Shown here piece after piece: positions 10,348 to 52,100 of a stretch of DNA of 64,000 bases. Both the position numbers and the translations under genes were made by a program. Under the pieces are notes generated by a model, which worked only from the letters and a program-made list of their open reading frames with translations, searched no databases and was not told the origin of the DNA. The DNA is taken from contig NC_056001.1 in the NCBI RefSeq assembly GCF_018446385.1, forward strand, positions 108,044,436-108,108,435, given 5' to 3'. This stretch comes from Zingiber officinale. Taxonomy: Eukaryota > Streptophyta > Magnoliopsida > Zingiberales > Zingiberaceae. The stretch's first letter is position 1; each line of letters begins with the position of its first letter.

Positions 10348-10368
10348 GTCCCGGGGGCCGAAACTAAT

Positions 10369-14040: not shown

Positions 14041-14222
14041 ATGCTACAACGTACAAGTTCGACGCCTGCTACAACGTGTATCAGCTACTTGGACATTTAG
14101 CTACTACAACGTGTTGTAACCACTTGGACATTTAGCTCCTATAACGTGTAGCAAATACTTGGACATTTAGTTGTTACTGCTACACGATGTTAATTAGCTG
14201 CTATAATGTGTAACAACTACTT
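14041..14222. repeat. Degenerate minisatellite, about 38-40 bp unit
   Basis: About four to five imperfect copies built from the words CTACAACGTGT, AGCAACTACTTGGACATTT and AGCTG. It lies directly before the chromovirus gag. Confidence 0.75.
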
Positions 14223-14278
14223 GATAAGTCGTTTCATTTTAAGTTGGTACTATGGGCGCGTCGGGCTCTTAGACTCCG

Positions 14279-15387
14279 ATGATTTCAAAGGTACCTACAG
14301 CGATCGTACCCGCCATACCCACTCCTACAATATTCACAGTGCCACCAGTGGTGCCACCTGCGGCATATCCGGCACCTCCTCCAGCCGTACCTACGGCGTA
14401 TCCGGCACCTCCTCCAGTAGTACCTGCTGCTACTTACCCGACACACGCACTAGCAGCACCAGTTACACCTACTGTACCTCCAGCAGCACCCACCTATATT
14501 GGCCCTGCAGTGCCACCAGCGGCACCTGCCCCAGCTTATGCAGTAGCACCGGGGATACCTCCCTTGGCCTATCCAGTGGTACCACTTGTAGTACCAGCTC
14601 CAATGGTTCCACCAGTTCCCGCAGCAGTCCCTACTCACCTTACTGATATAGTTGTGGCACGAGCTCGGATCCCAGCTTTGGCAGAGTCGATGAAAAGTCG
14701 ATTCACCCTTGGCGAGTAGAACATCACCTGGGCGAGATTTAGAGAGGCTTTTGAGAGCCAGTACTTTCCACGGTCATATCAGATGACCTGCCGTCAGGAT
14801 TTTCTGAGTTTTCGTCAGAACAATGCACAGTGACAGATTATAATGCTGAATTCAATTGGTTGGCCAGATTTTATCCAGAATTAGTTGCTGAGGACAGGTC
14901 TCATATGCTTCAGTTTGTCCAGGGACTGGATGGGCATCTGTAAGTAAAGATTGCCGGTTTTAGGAATTTGTCTTACATAGAGGTATTGGACATAGCCCTT
15001 ATGATTGAGTCAGCTCATCAGAGAGCATATCCGGACAAGAAGCGGAAGCAGACAGATCAGACATCAGGACAGATTCAGCCGTCACAGGCTACCGGACAGC
15101 AGCAGAGTGGTCACAGTCAGCCAAGACAGGGAACTTCTGGGGCATCTGGTCGGCCTCAAAAGTCAGAGCGATCTTCATCAGGACATTTTCGATCTTCTCA
15201 GCAGAACCGGAAGCAGCCGGCCAGCGACATTCACTGCACTATATGTGGGTCCAAAGGCCACATCACCTCAGCCTGCTCCCTGGAACAGTCAGTTTTCTAT
15301 TATTGCAAACTGCCTAGGCACCTGAGCCAAGATTGTTCGTTGAAGGCTCAGCATATTGCTTCCGGGGTTTCTGTTCATGGAGGATAA
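14279..15387 (+). pseudogene. Chromovirus gag remnant
   Basis: It starts with a Pro/Ala/Val-rich stretch (14279-14640), then RIPALAESMKSRF and, after a stop near 14717, the gag core seen as WARFREAFESQYFPRSYQ and later MLQFVQGLDGHL. The last open piece, 14968-15387, contains one zinc knuckle starting CTICGSKGHITSAC and a second, defective knuckle after it. This is the order of Tekay-type Gag. Stops and frameshifts make it non-functional. Confidence 0.83.
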
Positions 15388-15539
15388 CCCAGTCAGACAG
15401 GGACTCAGCGAGGAGGGCGGAGAGCCCAATCCTCGGATAGCCAGCAGAGGACAGCTCCCCCTACAGTAGCTGCATATGGCATGCACGGATAGGAGCACTC
15501 CAGCGCCGTTATAGTATCCCAGAGCTCTATTCCGGGACC

Positions 15540-15720
15540 TCAGTATCAGACGCAGGGGCAGTATCAGTTGTAGCCTCAGCCACTAGTGCAGTATCAGCTG
15601 CAGCCCCAGCCACTAGTTCAGTACCAGTCACAACCTCAACCCCTAGTGCAGTATCAGCCGCAGCCTCAGCCACTAGTTCAGTACTAGTCGCAGCCCCAGC
15701 CACCTGTCCAGTATCAATCG
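15540..15720 (+). repeat. 36-bp coding-type repeat (Gln/Pro-rich)
   Basis: About five copies of a 36-bp unit translating to variants of QPQPLVQYQ. It sits in the hinge between Gag and the protease region of the chromovirus, and some copies carry stop codons. Confidence 0.8.
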
Positions 15721-15824
15721 TAGCCCTCATATCCATCTCTGGCACAATATCCAGTACCGACTCAGTGGCAGGCTCAGACAGGCGCAACAGCCTTTGGTAG
15801 CACTACCACCTCCACCACCACCAG

Positions 15825-16592
15825 AGACGGGACGTATTCACGCGGTTACCAGAGAGGATGCACAGTGGGCCGACGGATCTGTTTCCCGCGGTATGGTCTC
15901 AGAAGATCGAGTCTATCACCAACTGGGAGCAACCAAAATTAGTTCAAGAGATCCAAAGTTTCTTGGGATTGGTCGGATATTACAGACGTTTCATTGAGGG
16001 TTTCTCGCGTATCTCTATGCCGCTGACACGCCTGACCAGGAAAGGTGTGAAGTTCACGTGGGTCCGAGGCTTGCGAGACTAGTTTCCAGGAGCTGAAGCG
16101 GAGATTAGTGTTGGCACTAGTTTTGGTTTTACCTTCTAGAGAGGACAGATTCATACTCTACACTGACGTTTCTTTTCAGGATTTAGGCACTGTCCTGATG
16201 CAACACGGCAGGGTAGTCTCTTATGCTTCTCATCAGTTGAAGGAGCATGAGAAGAACTACTCAGTACATGATTTGGAGTTAGCCGCCATTATATTTGCTT
16301 TGAAGATTTGGCAGCATCACCTTTATGGTATTACATTTGAGATTCTCACTAATCATAAGAGTCTCAAATACCTTTTCACTCAGAAGGAACTTAATCTCCG
16401 ACAGAGGAGATGGATGGAGTTTTGAAGGATTACGATGGTACTATTAGCTACCACCCAGGGAAAGCTAATATGGTTGTCGATGCGCTTAGCCGGAAGTCCA
16501 GAGGGACTTTAGCTTGCCACCGAGTTGTGGTCACGGACTTGATTCAGGATTTCTCCGAGTTTGGCCTTGAGAAGCAGGGACGGACAGAGTAG
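15825..16592 (+). pseudogene. Chromovirus RT C-terminal end and RNase H remnant
   Basis: The sequence passes from a pre-protease motif (RIHAVTREDAQ) almost directly to the end of the RT (WEQPKLVQEIQSFLGLVGYY). A deletion has therefore removed the protease and the catalytic RT. RNase H follows: [35 protein letters not shown], then ANMVVDALSRKS. Stops occur near 16081 and 16423. Confidence 0.85.
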
Positions 16593-16789
16593 GGTATTCT
16601 GGTTACCATGGTTGCTCAGTTATCGATCAAGACGAGGATCCGAGAGGTCCAGGCCGGTGATTAGCACTTATAGTCCATTGGCAGTTAGGTAGCTTCCGGG
16701 CAGCAGACAGAGTTCATCTGAGATGACGCGGGTATTATATATTTTCGAGATCGATGATGCGTACTTCCATCTCACCCGATCAGGGAGGA

Positions 16790-18050
16790 GTTACTTCAGA
16801 AGGCTCATCACTCTCGATTTGCTATCCACCCAAGCGAGACCCCGCATGTATTGAGACTTGAGGCGTTCCTATTGGTGAAATGGCATGAAGAAAGACATCG
16901 CGGAATTTGTAACTAGATGTCTTGTCTATCAGCAGGTGAAGGCTGAGCACCAAAGACCTGCTAGATTACTTCCGAGGATTCTGATTTCAGAGTGGAAATA
17001 AGAGCACATCACTATGGATTTTGTGGTGGGATTGTCTAGGGCACGATAAGACCATGACATGATTTGGGTAGTCGTTGACCGATTAACCAAATCCGCACAC
17101 TTCTTAGCGATCCAGAAGACCAATTCTCTGGATCGATTGGCAGAGCTGTATTGTCGAAAGATCATCAGATTGCATGGTGTTCCATTGAGTATTATATCGG
17201 ATAGAGACCCACGGTTCACGTCTCAATTCTGGCAGAGTCTGCAGCAGACCTTGGGTACACAGCTTCGATTCAGCACAGCTTTTCATCCATAGATAGATGG
17301 GCAATCAGAGTGGACCATTCAGACTCTAGAGGACTTGCTGAGGTCTTGTGTTATAGATTTTGGAGGCAACTGGGAAGACCACTTGCCATTGGTAGAGTTC
17401 GCCTACAACAACAGCTATCATTCGGCTATCCAGATAGCACCGTTTGAAGCGTTGTATGGTAGGCCTTGTCGTACACTCACCCTCTGGGAGGAGGTTGGGG
17501 AGGCTCAGCTGTTAGGACCTCATAGAGCTCAGCAGGAGGCAGAATTGGTCCGTACTATCAGACGGAGGATGTCCAAGGCGCATGACCGTCAGAAGAGTTA
17601 TGCTGATCGGAGACGTAGACCCCTGGAGTTCTCTACTGACGACCATGTATTCCTGAGAGTCTCACCCATGAAAAAGGTGAAGAGATTTGGCCTCTGAGGT
17701 AAGCTAGCTCCATGATACATTGGGCCTTTCCAGATCTTGGAGAAGATTGGAGCAGTAGCTTATCGTTTGGAGCTACCACCGGCTCTGGCAGACGTTTACG
17801 ATGTGTTCCATGTGTCTATGCTGAGGAGATATGTAGCTGACCCAGCACATGTTCTGTCAGATATACCAGTTCTCATTCAACCCAGTGTTACCTACGAGGA
17901 GGTCCCGGTACAGATTCTGGACCAGAGAGAGCGTCAGCTGCGAAACAAGACTATCCGACTGGTTAAATTCGGATGACAACATCATTCTGACGAGAAGGCT
18001 ACTTGGGAGATCAAGGATACGATCCGAGCTTGATACCCCCATCTTTTCAC
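16790..18050 (+). pseudogene. Chromovirus integrase and chromodomain remnant
   Basis: The integrase zinc finger is degraded (around 16790-16940). The core is clear: [39 protein letters not shown] and a QSEWTIQTLEDLL region. After integrase come GPFQILEKIGAVAYRLELPP and DVFHVSMLRRYV, then a chromodomain ending in KATWEIKDTI. This C-terminal chromodomain defines the chromovirus clade, where it targets integration to heterochromatin. Several in-frame stops are present. Confidence 0.87.
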
Positions 18051-29266: not shown

Positions 29267-32200
29267 ATGGAAAAGGGTATACCAGGCGGCGGTCAGGGCG
29301 ACGGTCAGGGCGACGTCAAGCAGCTCGCGGATTGCACTGTTGCCAAGTAAGTCATTCCGCTCGTCGATCGAATTCTCCTTCTACGACCGATAATGCTTGA
29401 TATATCCTCTGAAAATCGTTGCGTTTTGTTTGCCATGCCGTCGAAGATTAAAATTTCACCTTTTGATTTGTTTATTTATCTCGTCCTTCTTCCTATCCAG
29501 ATCTTTTGTTTGTCCTTATAAGAACTCTAGCTCGATTGTACATCCTTTTTCATTTGAGTTATGTGATCAATGATATCAGGGCGAGTAAATGCATGAAAGA
29601 GTTCGTGTTCTGTCCTGTGTTTTTGGTTTTTTTTTTTTTACCGAATCGCCATTTGTAACATCTGACCATGTTTGATCTTACTAGTGAAATAAAATTTTTG
29701 TTATCATCCACCGAGCTGAACTCAGTTGTTTTACATAGCCACATTTAGCAAAGAGGAAATGATCCAATTAATCCCATTGTGGAAGTTCCAGTGTTTTCTG
29801 GACAAAGTTGCCTACACTTTCAATTATATCTGTGAATTTTATAGGAGTCGACTATTGCTTGTAAATTTGAAATAAAATATCACATTTTGTTGTTGGTTTA
29901 GGAGAAATACCTCCTTCAAAGTACAATGAATTATCAGAGTTGAGTTCCTTCAAGCAGTGGCTTTCCATTTATTCTTTGCGTACATCATATTGAGAAGCTA
30001 TTGGATTGGTACATTTATAATGATAAAGTAAGAAAACTTATTTTCTTGGCATGCTTAGTTACCTACCTTGCTCAGTTCTTTCTCTTTATAAAGCATGCAA
30101 TTGCAACCTACTAGAGTGATGCTTGTGTGTGCTATACAAACAACAAATGTATTATATTTTTCTGAGTAGAAGTCAAAACACTTTTGGTTTTAAGTTTTGT
30201 CATTTTTGCTTGTTATTCTTTTTTCTATGAATACACTGTCATAGGGGCTTTGGTGTCTTTAGAGGAAACAAATTTGTACAAACTATGTGCATATCTTATT
30301 GTTGTAGAATAGTATAATAAACATTTACGTAAGATCATGTGACCATTATTATGTGCCTATTTTTATGGGGAAAAGTTCTGATTGATGTGCAGCTTATGCC
30401 TATTAATCACCTATTTTGGTCCATATCCATACTATTTGAATGGCCACTTGAGTGTTTTCGGAGAACTATTACTTTTGTGATACCATGTTAGATTTTTGGG
30501 TGTACGTGTGCGCTTTATTCATGAATATCGTTCTACTCTTGGCAAGAATATGGCAACTTTGGGCAGCAATGACTTCAGAACAACATGGCATATGGGTTGC
30601 TCCTGTAAGCACCAGTGCCAATACAAGTAGCATAGAACATGTTCTCTATAAGAAGAAACTCTTGCAAGGAATTCAGGCATAACCTGAACCTTACTCGAGT
30701 CAGTGGGAAAACTAGTTTGTAAACCTTCTAGTTCTTAATTCCAAGTTTGCGTTCTTGCTTTACTTCCGCTACCCTCTTTTGGTATCAGAGCCTTACAAAT
30801 TCTTTTGTTTTGGCGTGTTGGCACTATGCAATTCTGAGAAACGAAAGGATAGATCCTAACTTGGTTAAAACGGCAGGAGGCCTAAGAAAACCAAGGGCAC
30901 ATCTATATGAGATTCTCAGGAAAGGAACTACCCTCGCCAAGGCAACAGGAATCCCTGTAAGTACTGATCCCTTTTATGAGTAATTATATTATTTCAAGAA
31001 ACACTTCATCCTATAGAGAAGCAATTTCTGCAACTGATCCTATAGAATCACCCTCAACTGGTTTCGCTAAACCAAGTGATTACCAGGGTTCTACACCTAG
31101 TATTTCCACAATCATTAAGCAAAACAATACCCAAATCCAGCTACTTGTCCAAATTTCTGAAACACTAAAAGAAATTCAAGCCAGTCTACAAAAACAAAAT
31201 CCAACTCCTTTTCCATCAGACCTGATTACAAAATTGCAAAACCTTACTCTCTCTAAGCCTAAAGAAAAGCCTGGAAAACTGTATGTTTTCAAAGATCCTT
31301 ATAAAATTCTAAAAGAAGAACAAGAAAAATTGAAAGGATCATGGCAACCACAAGGACAGAGTAGCAGCAAATAACCACAACACCACTATTTGAAGATCAA
31401 ATACGAGGTTATCGGCGAAATCAACGGCGATTGTTCAACACACAACAAGCAGCAAGGCGCGTTGGGCAAGCTCTTATTGGTGGTACTTCAACAAGGCATA
31501 CTCTTGAACAACAAATTGAGCCTGAAACTCAATTACAATTATCCATGCAAGAACGAGCTTCCATAGTACCGGCTGAGGTACTTTACCACTCCCGAAGGGA
31601 TGATGCACATCATCGAGTATATGTGCATAGATCTGAAGAAGCAATACTTGTGACTGACAACCATCAAGTGGACAGAAGCTTTATACAAGAAGAAAGCTTC
31701 AATCAACTACGACGAAGTGGGATGCAATATATTCACCTTGGAGTCCTTCAGGTACGCATACAAATATTACACCGTCAACAAGAAGGAACGATGGCACTTG
31801 TTGTCTTTCGAGATAATAGGTGGCAAGGTCATCAGGCAATCATAGCAACAATGGAAGTAGATCTTACCAAAGGAAGCCAAATGATCTACGTGATTCCAGA
31901 AATTATGATGACAATTGGCGATTTCTACCGAAATGTTCAAATATCCATCCTTACAAGAGGATATGAAGCCTGGCAAAATAGCGAAGCTAATTTGCTAATC
32001 ACAAGAGGACTGGTAGGTAGGCTTTCAAATACACCTAATGTTGGTTTTGCTTACGAAGTTCAAGGTGTTGTAGATTATCTTACTTCTCACGGAGTAAAAG
32101 CCTTACCTGGAAGAAGATTTTCAACTCATCGACTGCAAGGTCTAAATTGGACCATTAATCCTACTCAAATTACTATTCCTATGCAACCAGCAGAAGTAAA

Positions 32201-35200
32201 TAGTCAAACAATGATGGATGGACGCATATCATTAAGCTTCAACAATTATGCAGCAGCCCAAGTAGCAGAACCACCAAAATATAATGACAGAGATGAAGAA
32301 ATTTTGGCGGTATTGATTGAAACACATCCTGGTGTTTTTACTTACTTTGACGGCACGGAATCAGAATATCTTGAAAATTATGGAGATTCTGATAATATTT
32401 ATGACAAAGGAAAACAAATAGCAGAGCAAGAAAATTACTCCCCAAGGTACACTCCTAAAATTGAGCCTCATATTTTAGTAAATCGAATGTTTCCACAGGC
32501 AGTACTCCCAAAAAGAAAAACAGAGGGATCTGCTGGTCTTGATATAGCAGCAAGTCATGATGCTATTATCGAGCCATATGGACGAGAACTCGTACATACA
32601 GGCCTACGAATAGAAATCCCATATGGATATTATGGTCGTATAGCTTCACGATCGGGCTTTGCATGGAAACATGGAGTTGAAGTAGGAGCTGGAGTAATTG
32701 ATTCAGACTATCGGGGTGAGGTACAAGTTCTTTTGTTTAATAGAACTAGCCTTCCTATACTTATTACTTCTCATCAAGATATTGCACAATTAATCCTTGA
32801 GAAAATAGCTATGCCAGAAGTATATGAAGTTCCTCATCTGAGTTATACTGAACGAGGAGAGCAAGGCTTTGGATCTACAGATCAACATTCTGTCTTTTTA
32901 CCAATTAATGAAGCCTCTTCTTCTCAAGAACCCCACAAACTTACAACGCAGGATGTCTTTTCCTTACTAATGCCACAGGAAAAGCTGGCAGTTTTGGTGG
33001 AAAATGATTCTTCCCACATATGTTTTGAGGAAGCCCATGCAGCGACTACAAGCCCAGGGGCCTCTGTACCGCAGCCCATGGACACTACTCTAAACTATGA
33101 GGAGGAACCTGATTCCTACCTTGATTATATTCAGTATTTATCCTCACTGTCAAACACCAAACCAATTTGGGACACCTACTCAGATGATGAATGGACTAAT
33201 CCATTCGCCAGTGAAGGTGGTGGGAGAAGAGAACATGCTCTTGAATTACGACCAGAAAATTATGAAGAAATTGTTCAACTCATTGCTGCAAATTGTGAAA
33301 TGGAATATCCAAGTATTCAGCGGCTGACTGAAAATCTAATCGGGGAAGAACAGATATATTCAACTAGTACGGTAATTTCTCCATATCGACCCCCTCAAGA
33401 TACAGCAATGTGGCCACCTGGATATCCACCGGCTAATAATACTCCAGGCCCAAGTTTTCAGCCCATATATGAGCAGCAACCTCCAAAGGCATCACAAGAT
33501 AAAATATATGGACCCTACCATCAGCACAACAACAAAGTGGGGCCCTTTTTGTTATTCCAGAACAATTAAATTTATTTGATGACGCCTTCTCAAGATGGGA
33601 ATCTATTACCAAAAATTTTGTGGCATCACAAGCCTTCTCAGACTCTAAAGAAAAAATAGAGTTTATTGAAAACCTGTTGGGAGAAATTGAGAAAATCACA
33701 TGGATTCAGTGGAGAATGACTTACCCTACTGAATATGATGCCCTTATTGTCATCAGTGAAGGGCGAGAAGGTACACAGAACATTCTATCTCAAATGAGAC
33801 GTGTGTTTTCTGCTGAGGACCCTACTCAGGGTTCAACTGAAGTTCAAAATTCAGCATACAGGGATTTAGAAAAATTATCCTGTAATAATGTTAAGCACAT
33901 AATCCAGTACATCAATGATTATATGAGATTGGCTTTGCAGGACCAGAACTTTCAGAAAAATTTTGGTTAAAAATGCCTGGGGATCTCGGAAATAGAATCA
34001 AGACAGCCTTTGAAGCAAAGCATCCCGGTTTAACAGTAGGAGTTTTTCCCAGAATTATATTTGCTCATAAATTTCTTGAGCAGGAGTGCAAGGATGCGGC
34101 ATTCAAAAGATCGTTAAAAGATCTATCTTTTTGCAACCAAATCCCTATCCCAGGGTACTATCAGAAGGCTGGATCGAAGAAAATGGGGATCCGACAATCA
34201 AAAACTTATAAAGGTAAACCACATAACACTCATGCTAGAATTGAAAAGCGAAAGCATTTATTAAGAAACAAAAAGTGCAAGTGTTATTTGTGTGGTCAAG
34301 AAGGACACTTCGCAAAAGATTGTCCTAATGATAAAAGAAATGTCAAAAGGGTAGCAATCTTTGAGCAATTAGAAATTCCTGATGATTATGATATCTTATC
34401 TGTACAAGAAGGAGAAGCTCAAAGTGACGCCATTTACAGTATTTCTGAAGGAGAAGATGATATTCTCGAGGTACAACACTCTGTCCAAACCTTGCAAATA
34501 AATTCACTGTATATGTTAGGTTTGGAAGATGGAGGATACAGGCAACAGATCAAACTGACAGATTCACAGTCAAACTGTATGCATCAATGGAAGCATAATG
34601 AAAAAATTATTGCTCCAAAATCAACCACTTGTACCTATTGCAAAAGATTAACTATTCAGAGAGCCAGGATACACTGTCCGGAGTGCTACCTTACAGTATG
34701 CAATTTATGCGGGCCCTATTACTTTAACAAAGAGGTACCTGTAACCCCTGCACCTGCAACTCCATTTAATCCTATGAACTTAATACAGGAGCAGAGAAGT
34801 TATATCATCTGGTGTGAAGAAGAAATCCGAAGGTTAAAAGAAGAAGTTGCATATTATAAATCACAATGGGAAGCCTTGCAGCTGGAACAAGATTTACAAA
34901 AAGATTTTCACGAACTTGAAGAAGAAGCTGCAAATATGTTTATTGAAGAAACAATTGCAACAACATCAAAACCTTCTACATCAAGCCCACGGTTAGTAAA
35001 AAATATGCTGTACAATTTAACTGTGGAAATGGATATACCAGGTATTCCTAAATTCAAGTTAAAGGCAATTTTGGATACCGGCGCAACAACATGTTGTGTA
35101 GACCAAAGATCCGTTCCCAAAAATGCTCTGGAACAAAATACTTATGTGGTAAACTTTAGCGGTATTAACTCACAACAATCCGCTAATATGAAGCTAAAGA

Positions 35201-38200
35201 ATGGGCTAATGATTATTGGGGATAATATCTTCAGAATTCCCTATACCTATAGCTTTCCTATGGTTCTTGGGGATAATATTCAATTTATCATCGGGTGTAA
35301 TTTCATCAGAGCAATGCATGGGGGACTCCGCATTGAAGGCAATATGGTAACTTTTTACAAAAATTTAACAACTATAAATATTTTACCATCTGTAAATGCA
35401 GCAATCGGAGAACTGAATCTAGATGAAGACGAATACATACAAATTAAGGAGATGGTGATATATTCAGCAGAGAAAATTAATCCATCACTCAAGCAAAGGT
35501 TTGACCCCATATTACAGCAGCTGAAGAAACAAGGAATTATTGGAGAAAATCCTCTCCAACATTGGCAGAAAAACAAAGTTCTTTGTCATCTGGATATCAA
35601 AAATCCAGAATTTATTATTGAATATCGGCCTCTCAAACATTTGACTCCAATTCAGAAGGAGGCATTTTCTAAACATATTAAGTCTTTACTAGACTTGGGA
35701 ATCATCCGTCCCAGTAAAAGCCGACACAGAACAACTGCCATTATTGTTAATTCAGGTACTACCATTGACCCTGATACTGGAAAAGAAAAGAAGGGCAAAG
35801 AAAGGCTGGTGTTTAATTAATAACGTCTCAATGACATAACTCATAAAGACCAGTATAGCCTTCCTGGTATTAATACCATCTTAAAGAAGGTTAGTAATAG
35901 TTGTATCTTTTCCAAATTTGATCTGAAAAGCGGGTTCCATCAAGTAGCTATGCACCCTGACTCTATAGAATGGACCGCATTTTGGGTACCTGATGGGTTG
36001 TATGAATGGCTCGTTATGCCATTTGGTTTGAAAAATGCCCCAGCAATATTTCAACGAAAAATGGATCTCTGTTTCAAAGGAACAGAGGATTTTATTGCTG
36101 TTTATATTGACGACATCTTGGTTTTCTCTCCAGATGAGAAGAGCCATGAACAGCATCTCCAACAGATGCTTAATATTTGTCAATTAAATGGACTTGTATT
36201 GAGTCCTACTAAGATGAAGATTGCAGTAACTGAGATTGAATTCTTGGGTGCAATTATTGGCAATTGCAGAATCAAATTACAACCACATGTTATCTCAAAG
36301 ATTGCTGATTTTAAAGACAATGAACTCAAGACCACCAAAGGTATGAGATCATGGTTAGGTCTTTTAAATTATGCCAGGAATTACATTCCTAATTTCGGAA
36401 AATTGCTTGGACCTTTATATGCTAAAACTTCACCCAAAGGGGAAAGGAAGTTAAATCAGCAGGATTGGGACTTGATAAAACAAATTAAAGAAAAGGTTCA
36501 GCAACTTCCAGATCTAGAGATACCTCCTCCTGAATGCTATATTATTTTAGAAGTTGACGGTTGCATGGATGGTTGGGGGGGGGGGGGGGTCTGTAAGTGG
36601 AAACAAAATAAATTTGACTCTATATCTTCGGAGAAAATTTGTGCATATGCAAGTGGGAAGTTTAATCCTCCCAAATCAACTATAGATGCTGAAATTTATG
36701 CCGTCTTAAATACAATGGAGTCTCTGAAGATTTATTTTCTTGATAAAGCTGAACTTCTCATAAGAACAGATTGTCAAGCTATAATCAGCTTCTTCGGGAA
36801 GACAGCAAACCACAAACCATCACGAGTTAGATGGCTTTCTTTCACCGATTATATCACTGGAGCAGGACCTTTGGTCAAATTTGAACATATTGATGGCAAA
36901 AATAATCAGGTAGTTGATTCTCTTTCTCGCCTAATATCAGTGTTAACTTTTTCAGAATGGCCGGAACAAGACCTTGGCAAGCTAGCTCTGGTTCCACAAG
37001 CACTCAAGGAGCTCGAGAAGAAACCCAACCAGGAGGCCCAGGAGATGTTGATCAAGGCCCTGAAGGCCCTCTCAGCCTCGCTGAACAATACCAACGAGAA
37101 TCAAGTAAACGCCATAATCAACCAGTCCTACTCAAAAGATTCGACCAAATCTCTGAAGATTTGCACCAACTTGAACAAAGAGCTGCAGTGCAAGCAATCA
37201 ATGCACTCCAACAACTACGCATCATCCACTCACTAAAGTTACAAGAGTGCAATAAGTGCAGAGGAAAGGATAACTGGTGGAATGATTGGTATCCAGCTGT
37301 CAAGCAATGTGACGACCAACTGACACAATCATCTTATCTTCTGCAAGACTGTGTCTCTCGCATGCGTAATTTTAAAGTTTGAAGCATGATGGACCCAATG
37401 AATGACTACTCAACGTCCATACAAGCTTTACTTTATTAAAGTAGCTTTATTAAAGTAGCTTTATGAAGCACTATGAAGATTCCTTCTGATCTTCTTATTT
37501 GAAAAACGTGTTGATGGGGCCCAATGAGCACCCAACGTTCTCTATAAGAAGAAACTCTTGCAAGGAATTCAGGCAGAACCTGAACCTTACTCGAGTCAGT
37601 GGGAAAACTAGTGCCACAGGAAAAGCTGGCAGTTTTGGTGGAAAATGATTCTTCCCACATATGTTTTGAGGAAGCTCATGCAGCGACTACAAGCCCAGGG
37701 GCCTCTGTACCGCAGCCCATGGACACTACTCTAAACTATGAGGAGGAACCTGATTCCTACCTTGATTATATTTAGTATTTATCCTCACTGTCAAACACCA
37801 AACCAATTTGGGACACCTACTCAGATGATGAATGGACTAATCCATTCGCCAGCGAAGGTGGTGGGAGAAGAGAACATGCTCTTGAATTACGACCAGAAAA
37901 TTATGAAGAAATTGTTCAACTCATTGCTGCAAATTGTGAAATGGAATATCCAAGTATTCAGCGGCTGACTGAAAATCTATCAGGAATTTTTTCTCAAAGA
38001 GATAAAGGAAAGGGAAAGGATTTCTCAAGTTATTTTAATTTCATAAAATAAAGGATAACTCCGCAACGAATTACCCTGTTATGGCCAATCTCAAGCTCAG
38101 ATAAGACAAATATTTAATGAATTGATCAATTAAACTATTGTGTTAATGTTAGATTGTTCCTCGGAAGAAATGCGTTGCAGGATCTGATTATAATGTCTTG

Positions 38201-41200
38201 GCAAGGACTTAGAACATGGAACATAGGAACCTTCATTGTCAAAACAATTGAGGCAGTAGATACGATGATTAGGAGAAAAATTAATATTGTGTGTACAAAA
38301 GATAAAATAGGTAGTGAGAAGACAAAGATGGTAAAGAATTTAGATTTTAAGTTATGGTACACAGGAAAGAGTAAAACAAGAAATGGAGTGAGTATTGTTG
38401 TAGATAGTTTGTTAAAGAATGAAGTTGTGGGAGTAGTTAGAAAGGGAGATAGAATTATAGCTGGCGAAAGAAACTATGAACATAATTAGCATATATGTAC
38501 CTCAAGTAGGATTAGATTAAGATACTAAATCAAAGTTTTGGGACGATCTAGATGAAGTATTACAAAACATGCTGTCAATTGAAATAATTTTAATAGAAGA
38601 CGATCTAAATGGACATGTCGGAGTGTAAAATGAGGAATATGAGAGGGTGCATAAGGATTATAGGTTTGAAACAAGAAATGAAGAAGAGAAAACTATATTG
38701 AATTTTGTGATAGCATATAACCTTATAATAATTAATATGTTTTTTAAGAAAAAATAAGAACACTTGGTCACGTTCAAAAGTGGAAATAATAAATCGCAAA
38801 CTGATTTTCTTATGATTAGGAAGAGGGATATAAAGATTTGTAAAGATTGCAAGGTCACCCAATGGAGAAAATTTAATTATCCAACATAGGTTAGTAACAT
38901 TGGATATACGCCTCAATCATAGTTACAAAAAAAGAAAGATAACACGACTGCTAAATTTAAGTAGTGGAAGTTAAATGATAGAAAACAAAATATATTTAAG
39001 GAAAAAGTAGAGTACAAACATTAGGTAAATATATGGTAATTCTAATACAGTATGGGATAAGATAATATCAAAATTGAAAATAATAGTTAAGAGCGTACTC
39101 GATGAGTCAAATGGGCATGCACCATCAAGTAAGTGCAAGGATTTTATCTCCAAATGGGACTTGCAACTAAGGGATGTTGGTCGTCCGCTGCAAGTGCTTC
39201 GCGATTTATCCTGTGGCCGGTGGAAAATTTCCGTGGAGCTAGGCCGGTCACTCCAGACTCGATGTTACTCAGCCTGGTTAATTATTTTTTTTTATGGTGG
39301 AATGAGAAAGGAAAAGAAAAACGAACAGCCTATTAGGAATTATATATTTGTAAGAACAAGGAAAACTTAAATAAATATACAATAGTCAAAAAAGAGACTA
39401 AGAAAGAAGTGAATAAAATAAAGACATTGATAGAATAGCTAAAGTGATAGAGAGGAAGACAAGAAATTTTATCCAAATCAGATGTATTCACGATAAATGC
39501 AATAGGGTACTAGTAAATGATGAAAAAAATAAAAGTGCGGTGAAAGAGGTATTTTTATCAATTTTTTAATAAAGTTTTAGGTGACCAACTGAATTTAGTT
39601 AATTTAAGTAGGTCAAATGAATATATAAATTTAAATTTTTATCGTAGAATTCAAATTTTTAAAGTAGAACAAGCTTTAAATATGATGTAAAATGAAAAAG
39701 TTGTTGAACCAAATGATATTCCGATAGAGGTATGGAAGTACTGAGAGAAACAAAGTATTGAATGATTTACAAAATTATTTAACATGAAATTGAAAATAAA
39801 AAAAATGTTAAATCAGGATAAGTACTCTAGTTCCTTTATATATGAATAAGGGAGACATATAAAATTTGCAAAGTATAAAGGTGTTAAACTAATGAGTCAT
39901 ACCATGAAATTTTTGGAAAGAATAATAGAAAAAAAAAATTATGGAAGTGACCAAAAATCAATTTAGGTTCATGCCTAGAAAGTCGACAATAGAAATTATA
40001 CATCTTAGGCAACTATTTGAAAAGTATCGTGAGCAAAAGCAAGATCATAATGTTTTAAGAGAAATTATATGGAGAATTTTAGAAAAGAGATGTATTACTG
40101 TAGCATAGATTGAACTAATTAAGAATATGTATAAGATTGTGAAGTTTTCAAACGGATTAATTGAACCATTTTCAATAAAAATAAGGTTACATCAAAGAAC
40201 AATTCTAAGTCCTTGTCTTTTTACACTAATCATAGACAAACTCACTAGACACATTCAAAACATAGTATTGTGCATGTTATTTGCAGATGATATTATTTTA
40301 GCAGATGAAATAGTAAATGTTAAACTAAAATTTTAGTGGTATACCCTAGAAGTAAAAAGTTTTAGGCTTACTAGAGTAAAGACATAATATATAAAATTTA
40401 AGTTTAACAATATTAGACATAATGAGGGAATTGTTAAGATAGGAGATGATGAGTTGTCTGAAACTAAGAGTTTTAAGTATTTAGTATCATTTTTGCAAAA
40501 GGATAGAAGAATTAAGAGAGATGTCTTACATAGAATACAAGCAGGATAGTTAAAATGGAGAAAAGCATCGAGGGTTTTATATGATCGTAAAGTGCCTCTA
40601 AAACTTAAAAGGGAAACGACGGTTCGACCTGCCATGTTATATGATGTTGAATGTTGAGCTATGATTTGAGTACATGTGCAGAAGATAGAGTTGCAGAGAT
40701 GAGGATGTTAAGATCGATTTGTGGACATTTGAGGATGAACAAAATAAGAAATGAGAGCATTAGAGAGAGTCAGAGTTGCATCTATTTATGGAAAACTCCG
40801 ATAGACACATTTAAGATGGTACGAACATATACTTAAATGCTCCAATTGACGATGTGAAACTATGACAAATACGCACATCAAACGAGGAAGACCAAAAAAA
40901 TACTTGATTAGCAACAATAAAATAAAATTTATTTAAATATAAATGATGATATAGCAAGGGAGAGTCCAATGACATAAAAAAATTCATATAGCCGACCACA
41001 CCTAGTGGGATAAGGTTAGTTGTTGTATCTTTTCATAATAACTTATTTTACTTCGACTATTTCATACTTCTCTTTACACAAAGTGAGTATATATATATAT
41101 ATATCAGTAGCAAAAAAGGCATACGTTATTTTTCCTAGAAACAGTCTCTTGCAAAAATCAAGGTAAGGCTACGTACAATAGATCATTCCCCGGACCTCGT

Positions 41201-43161: not shown

Positions 43162-46100
43162 TCAAATTTTCATCTGGCCTTGGTTTGAGGTTGCACCGGA
43201 AGATGGCTTAGCTACATATATTTGCTTCATTTTAGGGGCAGCATTTTTGTCTGCACTTGAACCTTGTTTCTTGACCTGGAATCTCCGATGATGCCATTCG
43301 GATCCAGAGCCTGCACGGTTCACAATTCCACGATGCTGATCACCATATCCAGCTGCATGAAGGTGATTGCCTCCAGGCACTGTTGGTGGTTGAGTCTTTG
43401 AGGGAACATCTGTCATCTGGCCACTAGGTCTGCTGCTACTTGCACTGATGCGCCCGCCATCATTAACAATGGTCCCTAAAGCTCGTGCTGCTGTGCTGGT
43501 ACCTTGCTTCTCATTCACATTTATAGCAATTTCTGAAGGTCCGACTGACTCATTATTGGCAGTGAAAGAAGTTGGATGCTTAGTCGAAACAAACTCTCCT
43601 GACATGTTGGGGGCAGCAGAATTGGGCATGGAAATAGTTCCAATAACTTCTACAGATGGAGATGTATGAGAAACATCAGACTTGTTATTTCCCATGGATG
43701 TATCACCAGTCCGACCAAATTGTAAAGGGATCCGACTGTCCAGCAGAGGCGGCTGCTTCTGCTGCTGTAGTGGCATGGATAAAGGAACGGAATGGAGTGG
43801 TGGAGGTACATGAGACCAAGCTCGCAGAGGAATATTAGCAGTTGGCTGAACAGAAAGTAGATACTCAAGTTACACAGGTAAATTAAGGGTAGTTGATTCT
43901 AACGGACAAGAAGCAAAATGTCATATTTTCGGTCAAATTTCAAACATAATAAGAAAAATCCATCATATACTCATAGAAACATAAAATAGGACTCTGCCAT
44001 CTTGGAACAACAATGCAGTAGGAATTATTGCATTTCAGATATAACTTAAAAGTTTCTAGTTTCAGCTATAGCTCAATTCATATTTACCTGGAAAGGATTC
44101 ATGTCAAACATAGTCAGAGGAGAAGCAACCATCAGAGATGACCCTGGAGCTAAATTATGGACAGTACTTGGTGCAGTGGTTGGGGTTCCCTGACCAGATA
44201 TAGTGTTATGATTTCTTGGATCACCCTCATTGTCACTAGCATTAGAAGAAGCTTGGTTTTGGGTCCACTCAGGTTGCTTCCCAGCAGGGATGTATGCAGT
44301 TCCCATATAACCTAATCCTATTTGCCCAAATTGTCCAACTGGAGGAAAATGATTGTAGACGACCATGTGAGGGGGGCATTGAACGCCAGATATTCCACCA
44401 GGGCTGATGAATGTACCATTATAGCCTGCCGGTGGGCGATAAAAAGGGTCAAAACTAGAGTGGTACTGTGGCCATGCCCCCAGTGTACTTGAACCTAAAG
44501 TAGCATTTTGAGAATGTCCCTGTGATCCGGCAGACTCATCATTTGACCCACATGAAAAAAGACACCCATCTACTATCCGATTCATCTCAAAGCTGGGGAA
44601 ATGTGAAGGTGGTGCTCCAGAAAATTGTGAAAGCATTGACATGGAAGCCTGTGGACTTTGTAAAGCAGACCATACTGAGAGTGGAGTATCTACAGAAAGA
44701 TCTGCTGGAAGAGCAACAGTTAAAGACTCTTCACTGGAAGACTGGACAGTTATATCTTGGTTTGCTGTGACACCTGTTGAAATTTTCATGCATTTTCATT
44801 AGCTTGTTAGAGCATTGACTTTATAATGATGAGATATTAAATGTACAAGTAAGATAACAGGATTTATTTTATCACCTCGAGAAGTCAATGCAGTGCCATC
44901 AGAAGAGTAAGTTTTGGTGTCTGAGGGACCAATAGCAGGTCCAATAATTTCATCACTGGTAATGGCAGCTACTGCAATAGCTGAAGCGGCTGCTTCAGCT
45001 TCTGCCTCTGCATCTTTGAGATTTGCAGATGGTTGACTAGAACACTTTTCTTGGACCAGAAACATAGCATGATTGTTGTTCATCAAATTTTGATCTTTGC
45101 TCACGTCTGATATGCTTGAATCTGGAGGCCCAGGTCCCTTGGAAATGACTCGGCTAACAGGAGGCAAAATATTTGGTAGAATCACTGCTCCTGAACCAAA
45201 AGAATTATACAAACTCAACATTTTGTCCATAAACACTAAGAACAGGTTGAATATTGAAGAAAATCACTTACCAAATTGGATTTTTTCACCAGCAATCAGC
45301 GAACTTATCGGTGTTGCACATGAAGGATAAGTGCTCTCTGGAGTCACAGCCGATGCTACAGATTTTGGGGGTTCAAGAACAATGCTAGATGCTAATTGTG
45401 AGCCAAAATGTGCCGACTTCATTGCTTCATCAAGCTGAGTTTGCGTTAAATCAATCACCTGAAAAATGATAACATCATTGTTCAAACACCACAAACAAAA
45501 CATAATGCACATAAAATTCAACATGGAGATGATGGGAAAATAAGTTCCATCAATGAGTAAAAAGATAATGCACCACATTCCAGAAAAAAACAAATATAAA
45601 AAAGACAATATTCTGCTTCCTACAGCTATGGAAAAAAATTACTCCAGCAATATAATCATTATTCAAAAATTTCCAGAACATATAAATAAATCCAATCTGG
45701 TAATGAATAAAATGCAAATCACCTTGATTATGCAAAGACCATTATAACACCAAGAATAACAAATCCTAGAAATATCTAAGTGCCATGTGAATGCCAAGAA
45801 AACAAAATTTGACTAAAAAAAGCATCTAAGCTCAAATTTATTGTGAAACAAATTATGCAACAAGACATGGTAAAACCTATTCTTTGATCATTTTACAGCT
45901 TAGAACCAATTTAAATTTGGCTTGCAAGGAAAGTCTGTAGAAATGACAAGCGTTTCAAGTCAAACACAAGAACAAAACAGACTAAATAGAATGTATTCTT
46001 TACAACCTTTTAAATTAACATGTGCAGCTTAGACATATTGAGGGGAAGATGGCAGTGATCTGAAAGATTCACCAAGACCTTGACAATTCATGTTGTTCTC

Positions 46101-49100
46101 TCTGGATAATATGAGATCTAGGTAAAAACAAGAACAAAAAATAGAGAATATGGCAAAAAAAAAATTGAGTCCTGAACAAGAAGAAACTAATGAGAGATAA
46201 AAGGAGACATTTGTGGGATGATTTTCAAATTAATCTGCAGTAAAAAAAAGGACTTGGTAGCTGATTAAGGAACCTTGGAATGAAAGTGCCCATAATTGCT
46301 TATTCAAGTTATACTTTATTGGATCACTGTCAAGTTGGCATGTGCATAATCAAACTAAATTACATAGTTACCGGCAACAATTAAACAATTAAATAATATT
46401 CAGGATAATTAGCAAAGTGCTGATATTCAAAAGCCTCATAGAGAAGGAAATTAATCAAATCTCTTTTGATCAGTTATGGATAAGAATCATCGGATTGTGT
46501 ATACTTTGAGGAGTATATTATTAGATTAAACAGTTCGCAAAAATGACCAAATAAGTTGTTGCTTGCAAGAACCTCAAATCATTTTAATCAATTGTGAATA
46601 TTGTCTAACATGAAGAACAATGAAGCTCACCAAAATAGGAACGAGTCAAAGTTAGATTGCTTTAAGATTTTAAGGCTTGACTTGACCAGAAACAAAATTG
46701 AAGGCACAGATCCAAGTTTTCAGGTTCAATGATTCTTTTTTTTTTTAATGCAAATGAGAGTTTAAAATTAAATTTTTTAACTAGATGAAAGCTAAATTCA
46801 AGAATTTGCTCTATTGCGATAATTAAGTTTCTCCTATCACAAAGAACTAAAGATAGGCTAAGTGATAGTACATGGAATTTAATATTGAATGAAAAATCTT
46901 TCTCCACGTAACAAATGATTGTAAGGCTACATATTTGACCCAGCTAAATTTGGTGAACTTGGAATTAGGGAGATGCACGTTCCATATACTTCTCCTCCTG
47001 ATTCCTACAACCCCAACCTTTTACGTTCACAAAACTTAAAAAGACTACAAGCTTAACCCACTGCACCATCAAAACTTCAGCCAGTGCTAAAACAGATGTG
47101 CAGGATTACAAGGTAAAATTAAAGAAATGCAACCTGGGAGCAATTAGGTTGATCTCTAATGTATTATAAAATTAAAAACTAAACAGATTAAGGTGATTTG
47201 GAATGTTTAAAATCAACCATTTAAACCAGTTAGAACTGAAGGGATGACAATGATGATGATGAATAAAGAATAAATCTGGCATGTAACATGCTAGTTGATT
47301 TTTGGCATAGAAATCAGTGCAGCTAGGCAACATGAAAGCTAGAGCGAGCAAATAAAACTTGATATGGAAATAGGGGAAATCATACGAATGCTAAGTTTTG
47401 GAAAGTGTGCAAAACTACAAATCTGAATCAAGATTTGGGAAGCATGTAAAACTACAAATCTGACTTCATTAAATAAAGAACCTAGATCATGTAGAACAGA
47501 TGTCTTCTTATAAACTAGTAAGATAGTACACGCCTTCCAAACTGCAGAATGGGGTTTTACCAAAGATTCTACCAAGAACTGCGACAGCTTCAAACAAACA
47601 AGGGTGGTTTATATCCGCATGAGGGGACTAGTTGAATGAGCAAATGTTGGTGAGGTAGCGTATTTGCTTTTATTGGACACAGCAGGCAATAAAAATAGTT
47701 GTCAAAGACAACTACACAATGCAAGATAAGAACTATATGATAAATTGCAAGACATTACCTGATTTTCACTGTCCCACGAATTCAAAGGCATTGGAGAATA
47801 ATCATCATTTTTGTTTTCTAATGGCCCCAGAACAGGAATTGACTCACTATCAGATACAGCAGGTGCAGATATCACCTGGCTTGGTCTGTAAAAAAATGCA
47901 TTGTGATCAAGACACCAATTATAGAAACAAAGGAAACTGCCCAAAAGATAGTCCATACTTTAATTTGTTCAATCTTTTTTCAGAAATGATATTTACTGAA
48001 GGAGTGCCAATTGGAGGCAGAGTTTGAGATGACATGCTGGCAGTAAATGCAAATGATGCCTCAAGTTTGGTAGATCCCTTTCCCCCAGCAACAAGTGGAT
48101 TAGAGCAAGCAATATTAGTTGTGTCTCCAAGAGAAGATTCAACTATTTTATTAGAGTTGGCTTTGGATGCATTACTTTGTAAAGTGGAAGAATGTTTGGC
48201 AGGAGCCTGTTGATCACAAAAAGAACAAAAAGAAAAAAAATGTCTTTTGAAATACTTCTAGACAACCACAGGAATTAAGCTAAATAAATTACCTTTTGCA
48301 CCCTAGCCTTGGACTTATTTTCTTTAGCCTTTTGTTCTCGTCGATCATTCAACATTTGCCTTTTCGACCTTACCTCAATAAAATCATCCTCATTACTAGG
48401 AATTTCAATTCCTGTTTGCTTAAAAACACGAACAACTCCGCTCAATAAAGGAGCATCACCGTCATCCTCAATAGTTTCGTTTGCATATGCATTGCCTTTA
48501 CCGGCATGAGACTTGTCAATGTTGGTGTTCTTTGAAAGAAATTCATTGCTCGAAACTTTGTCAGCCTTCCTATCAGAACTCACAGCTTGAGAAGTAGAAG
48601 CACTTGAATTGAAGCCATTTGGTTGATTGGTAATCTTGGTTGACTTATTCAAAGCTTCATCTTTCTTACTGAAGTTCCTTATAGTAATTCCAGTAGCAAC
48701 TGAATTCACATCTAACCCCACATTATTTAATGATTCTATGCTTTGTACTTTCTTTCTCTGAATATTATCTCTGACTCTGAATTCAGTTCTTCGGGTATTT
48801 CTCTTTGATCTACGAAGAAAGCTGCTTAAATCTCCCTGCAGTTCATCCATATCAGGAAATAATGCTGGGGCAGGAGTTCTAACACTGTGAGCATATCTCT
48901 TCCTTCGAGCCTCAGCTAAAGTACCTAGAGGAGCTTTTCGTCCAGAAATGTACCTTGAAGAATGAAATTCACCATGCTGTTGAGGTTGAGGCTCTCTTCG
49001 CCTACCATATCCTTGATAATTTCTCTTCTCAGTGGTATCATCATAAACATGACTGTCAGCATGAGAGGCTGAATCATTTGTACCTTTCTTGTCACCCATA

Positions 49101-52100
49101 AAACATGCATTTGTCCCATTCTGAGAAGCTATAGAAGCATGCTTTCCTGCCTCTAACAATGGATTAAGCTGCCCAGCTGCAAAAATTCCTGGAGACGGTT
49201 CAGCTATGTTTTGCACATGATAAATTTGCTTATCAGAAGAACTAGAAAATTTTCCATCTCGTTTTGTCATCTGAGAAATGTTTTGAGTTGCTTGGTTAGA
49301 CAAACCACCAGCAGGATTTTGATTAAATGAATAAGGAGATGGAACAGGAGGCTGAATGATAGATGTGCCATGAGGGGCTGGTGGCAATGTACTCGGAGAG
49401 AGAGTCGGGGCATACCTAAGCTGGCCAAACTGGAACAAAGGAGAATGGAAAGAATTAACCTGTGGTAGAGATGGACTGGTATGCGTATAACCATGAATTG
49501 GCATTTGAATTGAACCAATCTGAATGGCTTGTATAGGAGAAGGAATCAAAGGAGGACCAGAAAACAGACCAAACTGAAGACTGACAGGAGCTTCAACCTG
49601 ACTAACAATAGAAGGAAAGGATAAACTGGGTGCATCTGTGGTTGAAGGTGGCATTGACAAGCTTGTGGCAAGAATCATAGGCTGATCTGGCAATCTTGAG
49701 CTTTGAGATGCCCCAATACTGTTTGCAGAATAGTCAGATTCTCCTGCTGGATCAAGGGATAAACTGTGTAGAGCCTGTTCCATTTCACTTATATTGGTCA
49801 GAGAACTATCGGCAGTACCTTTTCTTGCAGTCATTTCACCATTAGTAATCAATTCTTCCAAGCAACCTACAGGAATTCCATGTATTTTAAATTCCTTTTC
49901 ACTGTTGCTAGAGGATATCTCAAAGGTATCGATATTTGGAAGTTTAATTTCAACACCTTCATTAAATCCAAGAATTACTTGTTCCATATTGCCAGTTGTC
50001 TGCACATCGGATTGTAAATCTTCCATATCATGGACTTGATGATGATTACTGTTGTCAGCTTCATGTGCTTCAGCTATGTCCCGGAATTCATCGCACTCAT
50101 TTTCCAGTATCTCTTCATTGGTCTCAAGAGGCCATTCATCATCAACTTCAGGAGAAATTGAACTTGAAGTCATCATTCTATCCATACTACCACCTTCCAA
50201 TGGGAATACAATATGCTCACTGTCAGATATAATTGTATGGTCACCATCAGCAGAAGCTGGCAGTGGGGGAGAATCCCTAGAAACATCCATCTCATGGTGC
50301 AAAAGAAGTGCAGGTGAAGTAGGTGGGCTTGAAACAGACAGGGAGAGCTGTGAACCACATCTTGGGCTCATTTTCTCTGACTCTTGCTCTAAATTGATAG
50401 CATTTCCCTCAAAAGAAGCAGTTTTTTGTGTTTGTTGACGGCTTTCCTGAAGCAGACCGTCATTACCTGTTGGCATGATCCGATGGTCATATATACTTGC
50501 ATGGCTATAATGACTATCATTATCTATGAAACCTGATGAACTAGCTCTTTCTGTAGTGCCTCTAAAGGAATTTCTGTGCAAAGGAGCTACATAAGGGGGT
50601 GGCGGCACATGAGGTTGCCTTGGTAATTGGCTGGACCTTGTGAAGGAGGAAAAGTCATCAACTGAATAATCAGATGATAATCCACAATACTGGGCATGGG
50701 AACTTCCATGTGAATTTCCTTGCATCATTCTAACATCTCCAAAGTTAACACCATCGTTACTCTCATCAACATCATTATTCCTCTTGAGATAATCATGCCC
50801 TTTGTTAGGATTCCATCTCTGTTTCCTATGTTCACGGAATTCTTCTGGCATTTGAGAAGGTTCCATCATCGCTTCTTTAGAGGATAGTCTACTAGGCATT
50901 TTTTCAGCACCACCATGGAACTCTTTTTTAGGGAAGCCTCTCTTGTAACCAAAAACATCCTGCCTTGAGTTATGGTAAGTATTATCTTCATTTAGGGAAG
51001 GAATAATTGCATCACCGTAGGAATACTTTCCTCTATCAACAAATGAAGGAAAACTATCCCTGGGAAATTGAGACCTAGAACCCAGTTCCAGAAATCTATC
51101 CACAGATGAAGAATCAGATATTCCAGACCCAGTGATTCGTTCTACCATCCTCTCACCATCCTCCCAACCTCCATCTTCTGTGACTAAAGGAATGTCTTTT
51201 TCCTTACAAAATTCAGGTATTTGTTCATTAGAAAATGAAGGAACTCTATTATCTTTCCCTTCAGCCTGTCGTCTTGCAATTCTGGCTTCCAACTCCAAAA
51301 GTTTCTTTCGTGCAGACTCTTTCCTTCTTTCTTCCTCCATTTGATATCTCCTCTTTTCCTCTTCTCTTGCTATCCTTTGCTCTTCGGCTCGCCTAGCAGC
51401 CTCCAATTTTTCCTGCTCTTCCCGTAAAGCAAGCTCTCTTGCCTCTTCTTCAAGCAACCTTCTTCTTTCCTCGTTTTCTCTGGCCAACCTCTCCTTCTCT
51501 TCCTCTTCCTTCTGTGCCAGCTCCAAAACTCTAGATTGCTCTTCCAAAATGCGTTGACGTTCCTGCTCTTGCAACATAAGTGTTCTCTCGAGTTCCGCTT
51601 CATATGACGCTCTAACTGGATCATGCAAATCAACTTGTTTCTCTGGAACCTTCTTGAACACTTTAGCATTCATGGCTTTCATACTCCCTGAAAAAGGATC
51701 CTTGCTGTCAAATTCAGAATCTTCAAGGAATTGTTTTCCACCACTTGATGAAGACCACTTTTCTCTACCAAAGTACGGTATTGGATCACTCAAGGAAGTG
51801 GTCTTATTATTGGTAAGAACTTGGCCCTTCAACAGTGTGTTATTCTGAAAAGAACTTTCTTTTGACCAACTACTGGGATAACCATTCTGGTGGTTATGGA
51901 CATTCTTTTCAGCACTCTTTCCGCTGAAGGATTCTGCTGTGGCTTTATTATCAATTCTTGAGCTCTCAAGGGAACCCAATTCTGTTCTTCCATGCCTATA
52001 ATCCTGGCTCCTCTTACTAAAACGATCACCAAAATTTTCTCCGTAAAATGAATGAGCATTGATGCCATCTGCATTCATTTCCCTGTTTCCACTTGAGGGT

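What the first reader, a model, noticed from the sequence alone, without database searches (positions are those of the whole stretch)
30641..37979. More than full-length badnavirus-like genome with a dUTPase, inside an intron
The sequence shows a circular-unit-length integrant (6896 bp between 76-bp repeats) plus a 368-bp appended fragment. ORF3 carries all five dUTPase motifs between the movement and capsid domains. Classical badnaviruses lack this domain, so the integrant may represent a distinct lineage of Caulimoviridae. The duplicated parts differ at under about 1% of sites, which suggests a fairly recent integration.
Basis: partly seen in the sequence, partly recalled or inferred. Interest (0 to 1): 0.88.

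Follow-up and report, generated by a model that had tools for sequence, protein, structure and literature searches.

The report
Ginger badnavirus insertion lacking ORF1
A slightly more than full-length badnavirus genome sits in a probable intron on one of two ginger chromosome copies; its dUTPase gene is not new for badnaviruses, but it belongs to a viral lineage that seems to have lost the first badnavirus gene long ago and yet kept evolving as a virus.

Summary
Window 30641-37979 is a broken endogenous pararetrovirus: a 6,896-bp unit between 76-bp repeats (75/76 identical) plus a 368-bp copy of an internal ORF3 piece (365/368). ORF3 pieces carry MP, dUTPase, CP, CCHC, protease, RT and RNase H. 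The host is ginger, matched by assembly statistics. The sister chromosome C15 has an empty site with 69 bp that are missing here, in the modelled intron of a 101-aa gene.

RT identity is highest to badnaviruses (mostly 50-65%); named other genera reach 40% at most. Named badnaviruses already carry a dUTPase, so it marks no new genus.

What is unusual is elsewhere: the lineage lacks ORF1 (DUF1319). In 8 of 8 lineage copies aligned from primer site to ORF2, about 196-201 bp separate the two and no ORF1 is found; 8 of 9 relatives of two other groups with an ORF2 match have it. Diverged lineage copies show dN/dS 0.03-0.12 at saturated silent sites, which points to long replication as a virus without its own ORF1.

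The parts
30641..37979 (+). whole integrant; host sequence resumes on both sides
   Evidence: empty site on C15; 69 host bases (give or take the shared junction bases) missing here
30641..30716 (+). left copy of the 76-bp terminal repeat; holds a TATA-like CTATAAG
   Evidence: TATA reading is by eye
30780..30791 (+). tRNA-Met primer-binding site TGGTATCAGAGC (consensus recalled)
   Evidence: single exact match in the window, 0.01 expected
30976..31374 (+). ORF2 homologue, 132 aa, open; no ORF1 found before it
   Evidence: 45% identical to ORF2 of an ORF1-bearing relative; ORF list; ORF1 profile
31431..33569 (+). ORF3 piece 1: movement protein domain and dUTPase
   Evidence: Pfam MP E 1.9e-5, dUTPase E 4.7e-35
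32499..32879 (+). dUTPase domain
   Evidence: model pLDDT 86
33620..33970 (+). ORF3 piece 2: start of coat-protein domain, other frame
   Evidence: Pfam PF22909 E 1.4e-9
33973..35820 (+). ORF3 piece 3: coat protein, CCHC knuckle, aspartic protease; ends at an internal stop
   Evidence: Pfam PF22909, PF00098, PF00077
35950..37236 (+). ORF3 piece 4: RT (C-terminal part) and RNase H
   Evidence: Pfam PF00078, PF17917; best solved relative 8r0s 'Enzymatic polyprotein', 181 bits, before Ty3 111 bits (that 8r0s is cauliflower mosaic virus is recalled)
37537..37612 (+). right copy of the 76-bp terminal repeat
37612..37979 (+). appended copy of 32971-33338 (ORF3 between dUTPase and coat protein)
   Evidence: 365/368 identical
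29267..29346 (+). host gene exon 1 (modelled)
   Evidence: GT donor; 12-bp in-frame length difference between C15 and C16
41632..41857 (+). host gene exon 2 (modelled)
   Evidence: AG acceptor, in frame with exon 1, 101-aa protein without Pfam match

Best explanation
This is an endogenous badnavirus in ginger, integrated by chance into one of two sister chromosomes. Shown: a linear piece slightly longer than the circular genome, joined to a second internal viral fragment, stands where the sister chromosome has 69 bp of host DNA, with 1-2 shared bases at the junctions. Inferred: the cell captured viral DNA during non-homologous repair of a double-strand break, without a virus-coded integrase. 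The parent virus belonged to a badnavirus lineage that carries a dUTPase inside ORF3 and has lost ORF1 and part of the leader. The dUTPase, by its conserved motifs and low dN/dS, was probably an active enzyme that lowered dUTP during reverse transcription (inferred). The copy now sits in a probable intron with a broken ORF3 and is a fossil.
For: Empty allele on C15: flanks match at 97.1% over 1,813 bp (and 91.8% over 1,043 bp further out) on the left, 97.6% over 5,946 bp and 98.5% over 6,081 bp on the right; none of three viral pieces matches the 25.4-kb C15 stretch. 69 host bases absent here; 2-nt (left) and about 1-nt (right) shared bases. Host: scaffold maximum 194.39 Mb and N50 141.27 Mb of the ginger assembly equal C2 and C15. 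RT identity highest to badnaviruses. dUTPase: Pfam, motifs, model; dN/dS 0.07-0.30 between the window and 11 lineage copies. The RT tree separates group I from window lineage plus group II (100/99). The dUTPase tree has group I on one side of a 97/95 branch, and the non-EPRV enzymes, ginger's own included, on one side of a 97/92 branch. So the domain appears inherited with the virus, not taken from today's ginger gene. ORF1: absent in 8 of 8 lineage copies aligned from primer site to ORF2; present in 8 copies of the other two groups.
Against: The genus call rests on identities listed by a Foldseek search with a poor RT model (pLDDT 44.6), not on a tree with named badnaviruses; no named sequences could be fetched. 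Five listed badnavirus entries are under 55% (54, 52, 50, 47 and, for one Pineapple bacilliform record, 27%). dS between diverged copies is saturated, so those dN/dS values are rough. In the dUTPase tree window lineage and group II join only at 84/82. One group II copy (L111) shows ORF2 (from residue 42 on) without ORF1. The paper gives 219 scaffolds, the genome held has 211 contigs. The gene around the insertion is a model.
Confidence: 0.8

Rival explanations
1. The ORF1-less lineage was helper-dependent: it spread only in plants co-infected with ORF1-bearing badnaviruses, whose P1 served both, a de facto two-component system.
For: ORF1-bearing groups I and II are present in the same genome. 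Lineage copies stayed under purifying selection, as complemented genomes would. Bipartite organisation is described for some florendoviruses (PMC4241990, abstract and passages).
Against: No direct test. The lineage kept MP, coat protein, protease, RT and RNase H, so it could also have lived without P1.
Confidence: 0.2
2. The ORF1-less copies descend from one integrated, defective copy that was copied by the plant genome (segmental duplication or retrotransposition in trans), not from a virus lineage.
For: All copies seen are integrated; several lie as inverted neighbours.
Against: dN/dS 0.03-0.12 at saturated dS in ORF2, MP and dUTPase is not expected for pseudogene copies. The flank left of the window copy was found only on C15 and C16.
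Confidence: 0.07
3. A distinct genus of Caulimoviridae defined by the dUTPase.
For: ORF1 loss and the 6.9-kb genome are unusual for Badnavirus. Some listed badnavirus entries are under the 55% RT cut-off.
Against: Named badnaviruses carry the dUTPase. Most listed badnavirus RT entries are at 58-65%, over the 55% RT clustering cut-off used to sort genera (PMC10377300, passage).
Confidence: 0.08
4. The dUTPase was captured recently from the ginger host gene.
For: The window's domain keeps a VGAGVID stretch as in cellular enzymes, unlike most of the 16 more distant copies in the alignment.
Against: In the tree the two ginger genes, the Arabidopsis enzyme and five solved dUTPases fall on one side of a 97/92 branch, all 29 viral rows of this genome on the other. 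One of the five solved enzymes may itself be from an algal virus (recalled).
Confidence: 0.03

Closest known systems
Zingiber bacilliform virus (unclassified Badnavirus, taxid 2170305; BFVD A0A2U8JGF9)
   Same: badnavirus, named for the same host genus, with a dUTPase domain
   Different: dUTPase only 45% identical; its ORF1 status could not be seen
Piper yellow mottle virus (Badnavirus)
   Same: ORF3 domains listed in the same order: movement, trimeric dUTPase, zinc finger, protease, RT, RNase H (PMC9963457, passage); RT fragment 62% identical
   Different: four ORFs including ORF I, 7,557-7,584 nt
Dioscorea bacilliform virus (Badnavirus)
   Same: dUTPase in a badnavirus protein (36-38% identity); RT 52%
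   Different: distant in both domains
Cacao yellow vein-banding virus (Badnavirus; abbreviation CYVBV expanded from recall)
   Same: dUTPase in ORF3 (PMC5649073, passages)
   Different: dUTPase reported between zinc finger and protease, not between movement and coat protein; ORF1 with DUF1319
Endogenous florendoviruses of plants
   Same: integrants often in introns, thought to enter by break repair (PMC4241990, abstract and passages)
   Different: florendoviruses favour TA repeats; here the longest TA run around the site is 2 bases long

Membership tests
Caulimoviridae | MP, coat protein with CCHC, retropepsin, RT and RNase H, no integrase | tested here: met
   Pfam on eight pieces; no integrase family among the hits
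Badnavirus | RT-RNase H closest to badnaviruses | tested here: met
   listed identities to badnavirus names: 65, 62, 62, 62, 60, 60, 59, 58, 58, 58, 54, 52, 50, 47 and 27%; named other caulimovirids 40% or less; poor model, no tree with named viruses
Badnavirus | ORF1 with DUF1319 | tested here: not met
   best profile score in the insert 2.7 bits; 8 relatives of groups I and II score 92 bits or more
Badnavirus | ORF2 before ORF3 | tested here: met
   30976-31374, 45% to ORF2 of L090
Badnavirus | tRNA-Met primer site near the genome start | tested here: met
   30780-30791; consensus recalled
Badnavirus | bacilliform particles and insect transmission (recalled) | not testable with these tools
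   no episomal virus at hand
trimeric dUTPase family (PF00692) | five motifs with catalytic Asp and Tyr of motif III | tested here: met
   motif roles recalled; PRSG reads SRSG
Endogenous viral element | covalent host junctions and an empty allele | tested here: met

The most novel reading that the evidence does not exclude
A two-ORF badnavirus lineage without P1 (DUF1319) existed in gingers for a long time, and it was kept alive by co-infecting ORF1-bearing badnaviruses, making it a helper-dependent partner in a mixed badnavirus population whose members are fossilised side by side in one plant genome.
Probability: 0.2. Interest if true: 0.72.

Novelty: new variant of a known kind. Interest (0 to 1): 0.48.

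Why it matters
The function of the badnavirus ORF1 protein is given as not known in PMC5649073 (2017), and every row visible in the passage of its domain table lists DUF1319 for ORF1. A natural lineage that did without it, over enough time to saturate silent sites, says that P1 is dispensable or can be supplied by another virus, and gives a natural comparison for finding what P1 does. An insertion present on only one of two sister chromosomes is also a marker for the history of the two ginger haplotypes.

Tried and rejected
Recent capture of the dUTPase from the host was my first idea; the trees speak against it. A private deletion of ORF1 in the window copy was rejected because diverged relatives share it. 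Whether ORF1 was lost once or twice is open: the free MP tree needs two changes, one clade is not rejected (p-AU 0.136), and the ORF2 tree has the ORF1-less rows on one side (support 67/54). A structure-based RT search used a poor model; only listed identities were taken from it. TA repeats at the site: none. Viral contig scans gave no relative or one stretch not followed up. A test of the host gene by its paralogue did not complete and was dropped.

Rows dropped: L034 and L019 (stop codons) from the RT structure alignment, L055 (stop codon) and L050 (left out by choice) from the dUTPase one; L020 (short) from the RT tree; 11 of 28 RT stretches gave no match. In the ORF1 count (27 fetched stretches and the window): L088, L096, L102 and L107 do not reach ORF2, L087 starts inside ORF2, L089 and L098 reach only 131 and about 52 nt before it, L093 and L095 show no ORF2, and L111 matches ORF2 only from residue 42.
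Full report
1. Observation. The coordinates are right. The repeat finder and a base-by-base comparison give a 76-bp direct repeat at 30641 and 37537 (one mismatch, spacing 6,896 bp) and a 368-bp copy of 32971-33338 at 37612-37979 (three mismatches). Pfam on separate pieces of the broken ORF3 finds MP, dUTPase, coat protein, zinc knuckle, retropepsin, RT and RNase H in that order. The primer site lies at 30780. The dUTPase aligns nearly end to end with solved enzymes and is modelled with mean pLDDT 86.

2. Host and site. The window lies in a 3.09-Gb genome of 211 contigs. The longest contig seen (194,392,478) and C15 (141,269,392) equal the maximum scaffold and scaffold N50 of the phased ginger assembly: 3.1 Gb, 11 chromosome pairs, 219 scaffolds (PMC8342452, abstract and passages). 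The left flank was found at two places only, here on C16 and at 99% on C15. On C15 the flanks meet, with 69 bp between them that are missing here. Flank matches run in order from 27.0 to 50 kb of the window, and none of three viral pieces matches the C15 stretch. C15 and C16 are taken to be the two haplotypes of one chromosome pair (inference from identity, order and the phased assembly), so the insertion is heterozygous. A modelled two-exon, 101-aa gene spans it; a 12-bp in-frame difference in exon 1 between C15 and C16 fits coding sequence. The junctions share 2 nt (left) and about 1 nt (right), as in end-joining repair (inference). Four differences in 444 duplicated positions fit a young event only if the parts were identical at the start.

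3. What virus. Listed RT identities to badnavirus names are: cacao swollen shoot fragment 65%; Banana streak OL virus, Piper yellow mottle fragment and Badnavirus IAB-2015 62%; Sweet potato pakakuy and Jujube associated badnavirus 60%; Canna yellow mottle fragments 59 and 47%; Taro bacilliform, Rubus yellow net and Jasmine bacilliform viruses 58%; Polyscias mosaic 54%; Dioscorea bacilliform 52%; gooseberry vein banding 50%; and one Pineapple bacilliform record 27%. Piper DNA virus 1 has 40%, and the other caulimovirids named have 23-32% (genus membership of these names mostly recalled). The model behind that search is poor, so the identities are the only use made of it. The dUTPase search lists Zingiber bacilliform virus (45%) and Dioscorea bacilliform virus (36-38%). 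PMC5649073 and PMC9963457 (passages) report the domain in CYVBV, Piper yellow mottle virus and a Dioscorea bacilliform virus.

4. Relatives in the same genome. A dUTPase family search scored 150 of 824 candidates, all 150 over the cut-off, some in long open frames. A DNA search with the window's dUTPase scored 40 of 129 candidates; 17 near-full-length matches (the window included) are at 93-100% identity. Of 20 copies chosen, dUTPase matched in 20 and the RT piece in 14 of the stretches fetched. Of 16 loci tested, 14 have an MP match. I sort the copies into group I, group II and the window lineage. The RT tree (17 rows, no outside virus) has group I on one side of a 100/99 branch. The dUTPase tree (37 rows) has group I on one side of a 97/95 branch, and the eight other enzymes, ginger's own two genes included, on one side of a 97/92 branch; window lineage and group II join at 84/82.

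5. The missing ORF1. From primer site to ORF2, three group I copies have 887-903 bp and three group II copies 633-683 bp (two with one mismatch in the site), with an ORF1 between (DUF1319, E 8.1e-35 for L090 and 1.1e-31 for L091). The window has 196 bp and no ORF1. Of 28 5' stretches (27 fetched and the window), 15 are of the window lineage. Eight of these (window, L086, L099, L100, L101, L103, L104, L105) align with the window's leader from the primer site into ORF2, at about 196-201 bp, without ORF1. L103 has another exact site 281 bp before ORF2. Two (L089, L098) align only 131 and about 52 nt before ORF2; one (L087) begins inside ORF2; four do not reach it. Two more copies, L097 and L106, a separate group, have 170 bp and no ORF1. 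Eight of nine group I and II stretches with an ORF2 match have ORF1; the ninth, L111, matches ORF2 only from residue 42. L093 and L095 show no ORF2. A profile of five ORF1s finds those eight at 92 bits or more (best frame) and no other stretch above 2.7 bits. One loss is not rejected (p-AU 0.136 on MP; one side on ORF2, support 67/54), but the free MP tree places L097 and L106 with group II.

6. Replication without ORF1. Between the window and close copies dN/dS is 0.02-0.30 with dS 0.06-0.36. Between the window and diverged lineage copies (L089/L054, L096, L098, L099, L101, L104; dS 1.5-3.0 or beyond estimate) it is 0.03-0.12, and 0.10-0.28 for ORF2 and dUTPase to L097 and L106. Pseudogene copies would tend to 1. 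So the divergence mostly arose in replicating genomes (inference). Whether they needed a helper is open.

7. Literature. Searches of the held library: dUTPase with Caulimoviridae, 8 papers; three of six terms on dUTPase, badnavirus and endogenous elements, 81, of which 20 listed; badnavirus with trimeric dUTPase, 1; ginger, endogenous, badnavirus, 2; Zingiberaceae with Caulimoviridae, 4; Zingiber bacilliform virus, 0; DUF1319 with badnavirus, 4; two of six terms for a missing ORF1, 16, of which 15 listed, none of those holding badnavirus; badnavirus with Zingiber officinale, 5. PMC8346255 lists one ginger transcript joining caulimovirid and host sequence (passage). No ORF1-less badnavirus was met in these listings and passages; the library is partial and no paper was read whole.

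8. Verdict. An ordinary endogenous badnavirus as to dUTPase and integration; a new variant as to the lineage without ORF1.

Noticed in passing
window 38206-38760: Right flank from about 226 bp past the insert is a repeat with dozens of copies at about 83-84% (40 of 4,002 candidates scored); an RT fragment at 40109-40333, below the Pfam cut-off, suggests a LINE.
   Followed up: no
window 43165-53227, minus strand: Large plant gene with a 1,650-aa open frame and probable further exons, no Pfam match; resembles a conserved plant protein by recall only.
   Followed up: partly
window 9046-11792 minus; 14194-17976 plus: Gag and RT pieces at 9.0-11.8 kb and an RNase H piece at 16.1-16.4 kb of LTR retrotransposons; an integrase-like stretch at 17.0-17.7 kb by eye.
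   Followed up: no
G000 places: Several dUTPase-bearing copies lie as close opposite-strand pairs with equal scores, as if inserted or duplicated as inverted repeats.
   Followed up: no
L054, L034 against window: The dUTPase changes faster than RT within the lineage: 74% against 90% identity for one relative.
   Followed up: partly
L066/L067 and L070/L071: Ginger has two intron-bearing dUTPase genes, each on two sister chromosomes.
   Followed up: partly
C9:56819661 and C10:54188648: Possible allelic pair among the 17 close copies; other close copies seem to lack a partner at a similar place on a neighbouring-numbered chromosome, judged by position only.
   Followed up: no
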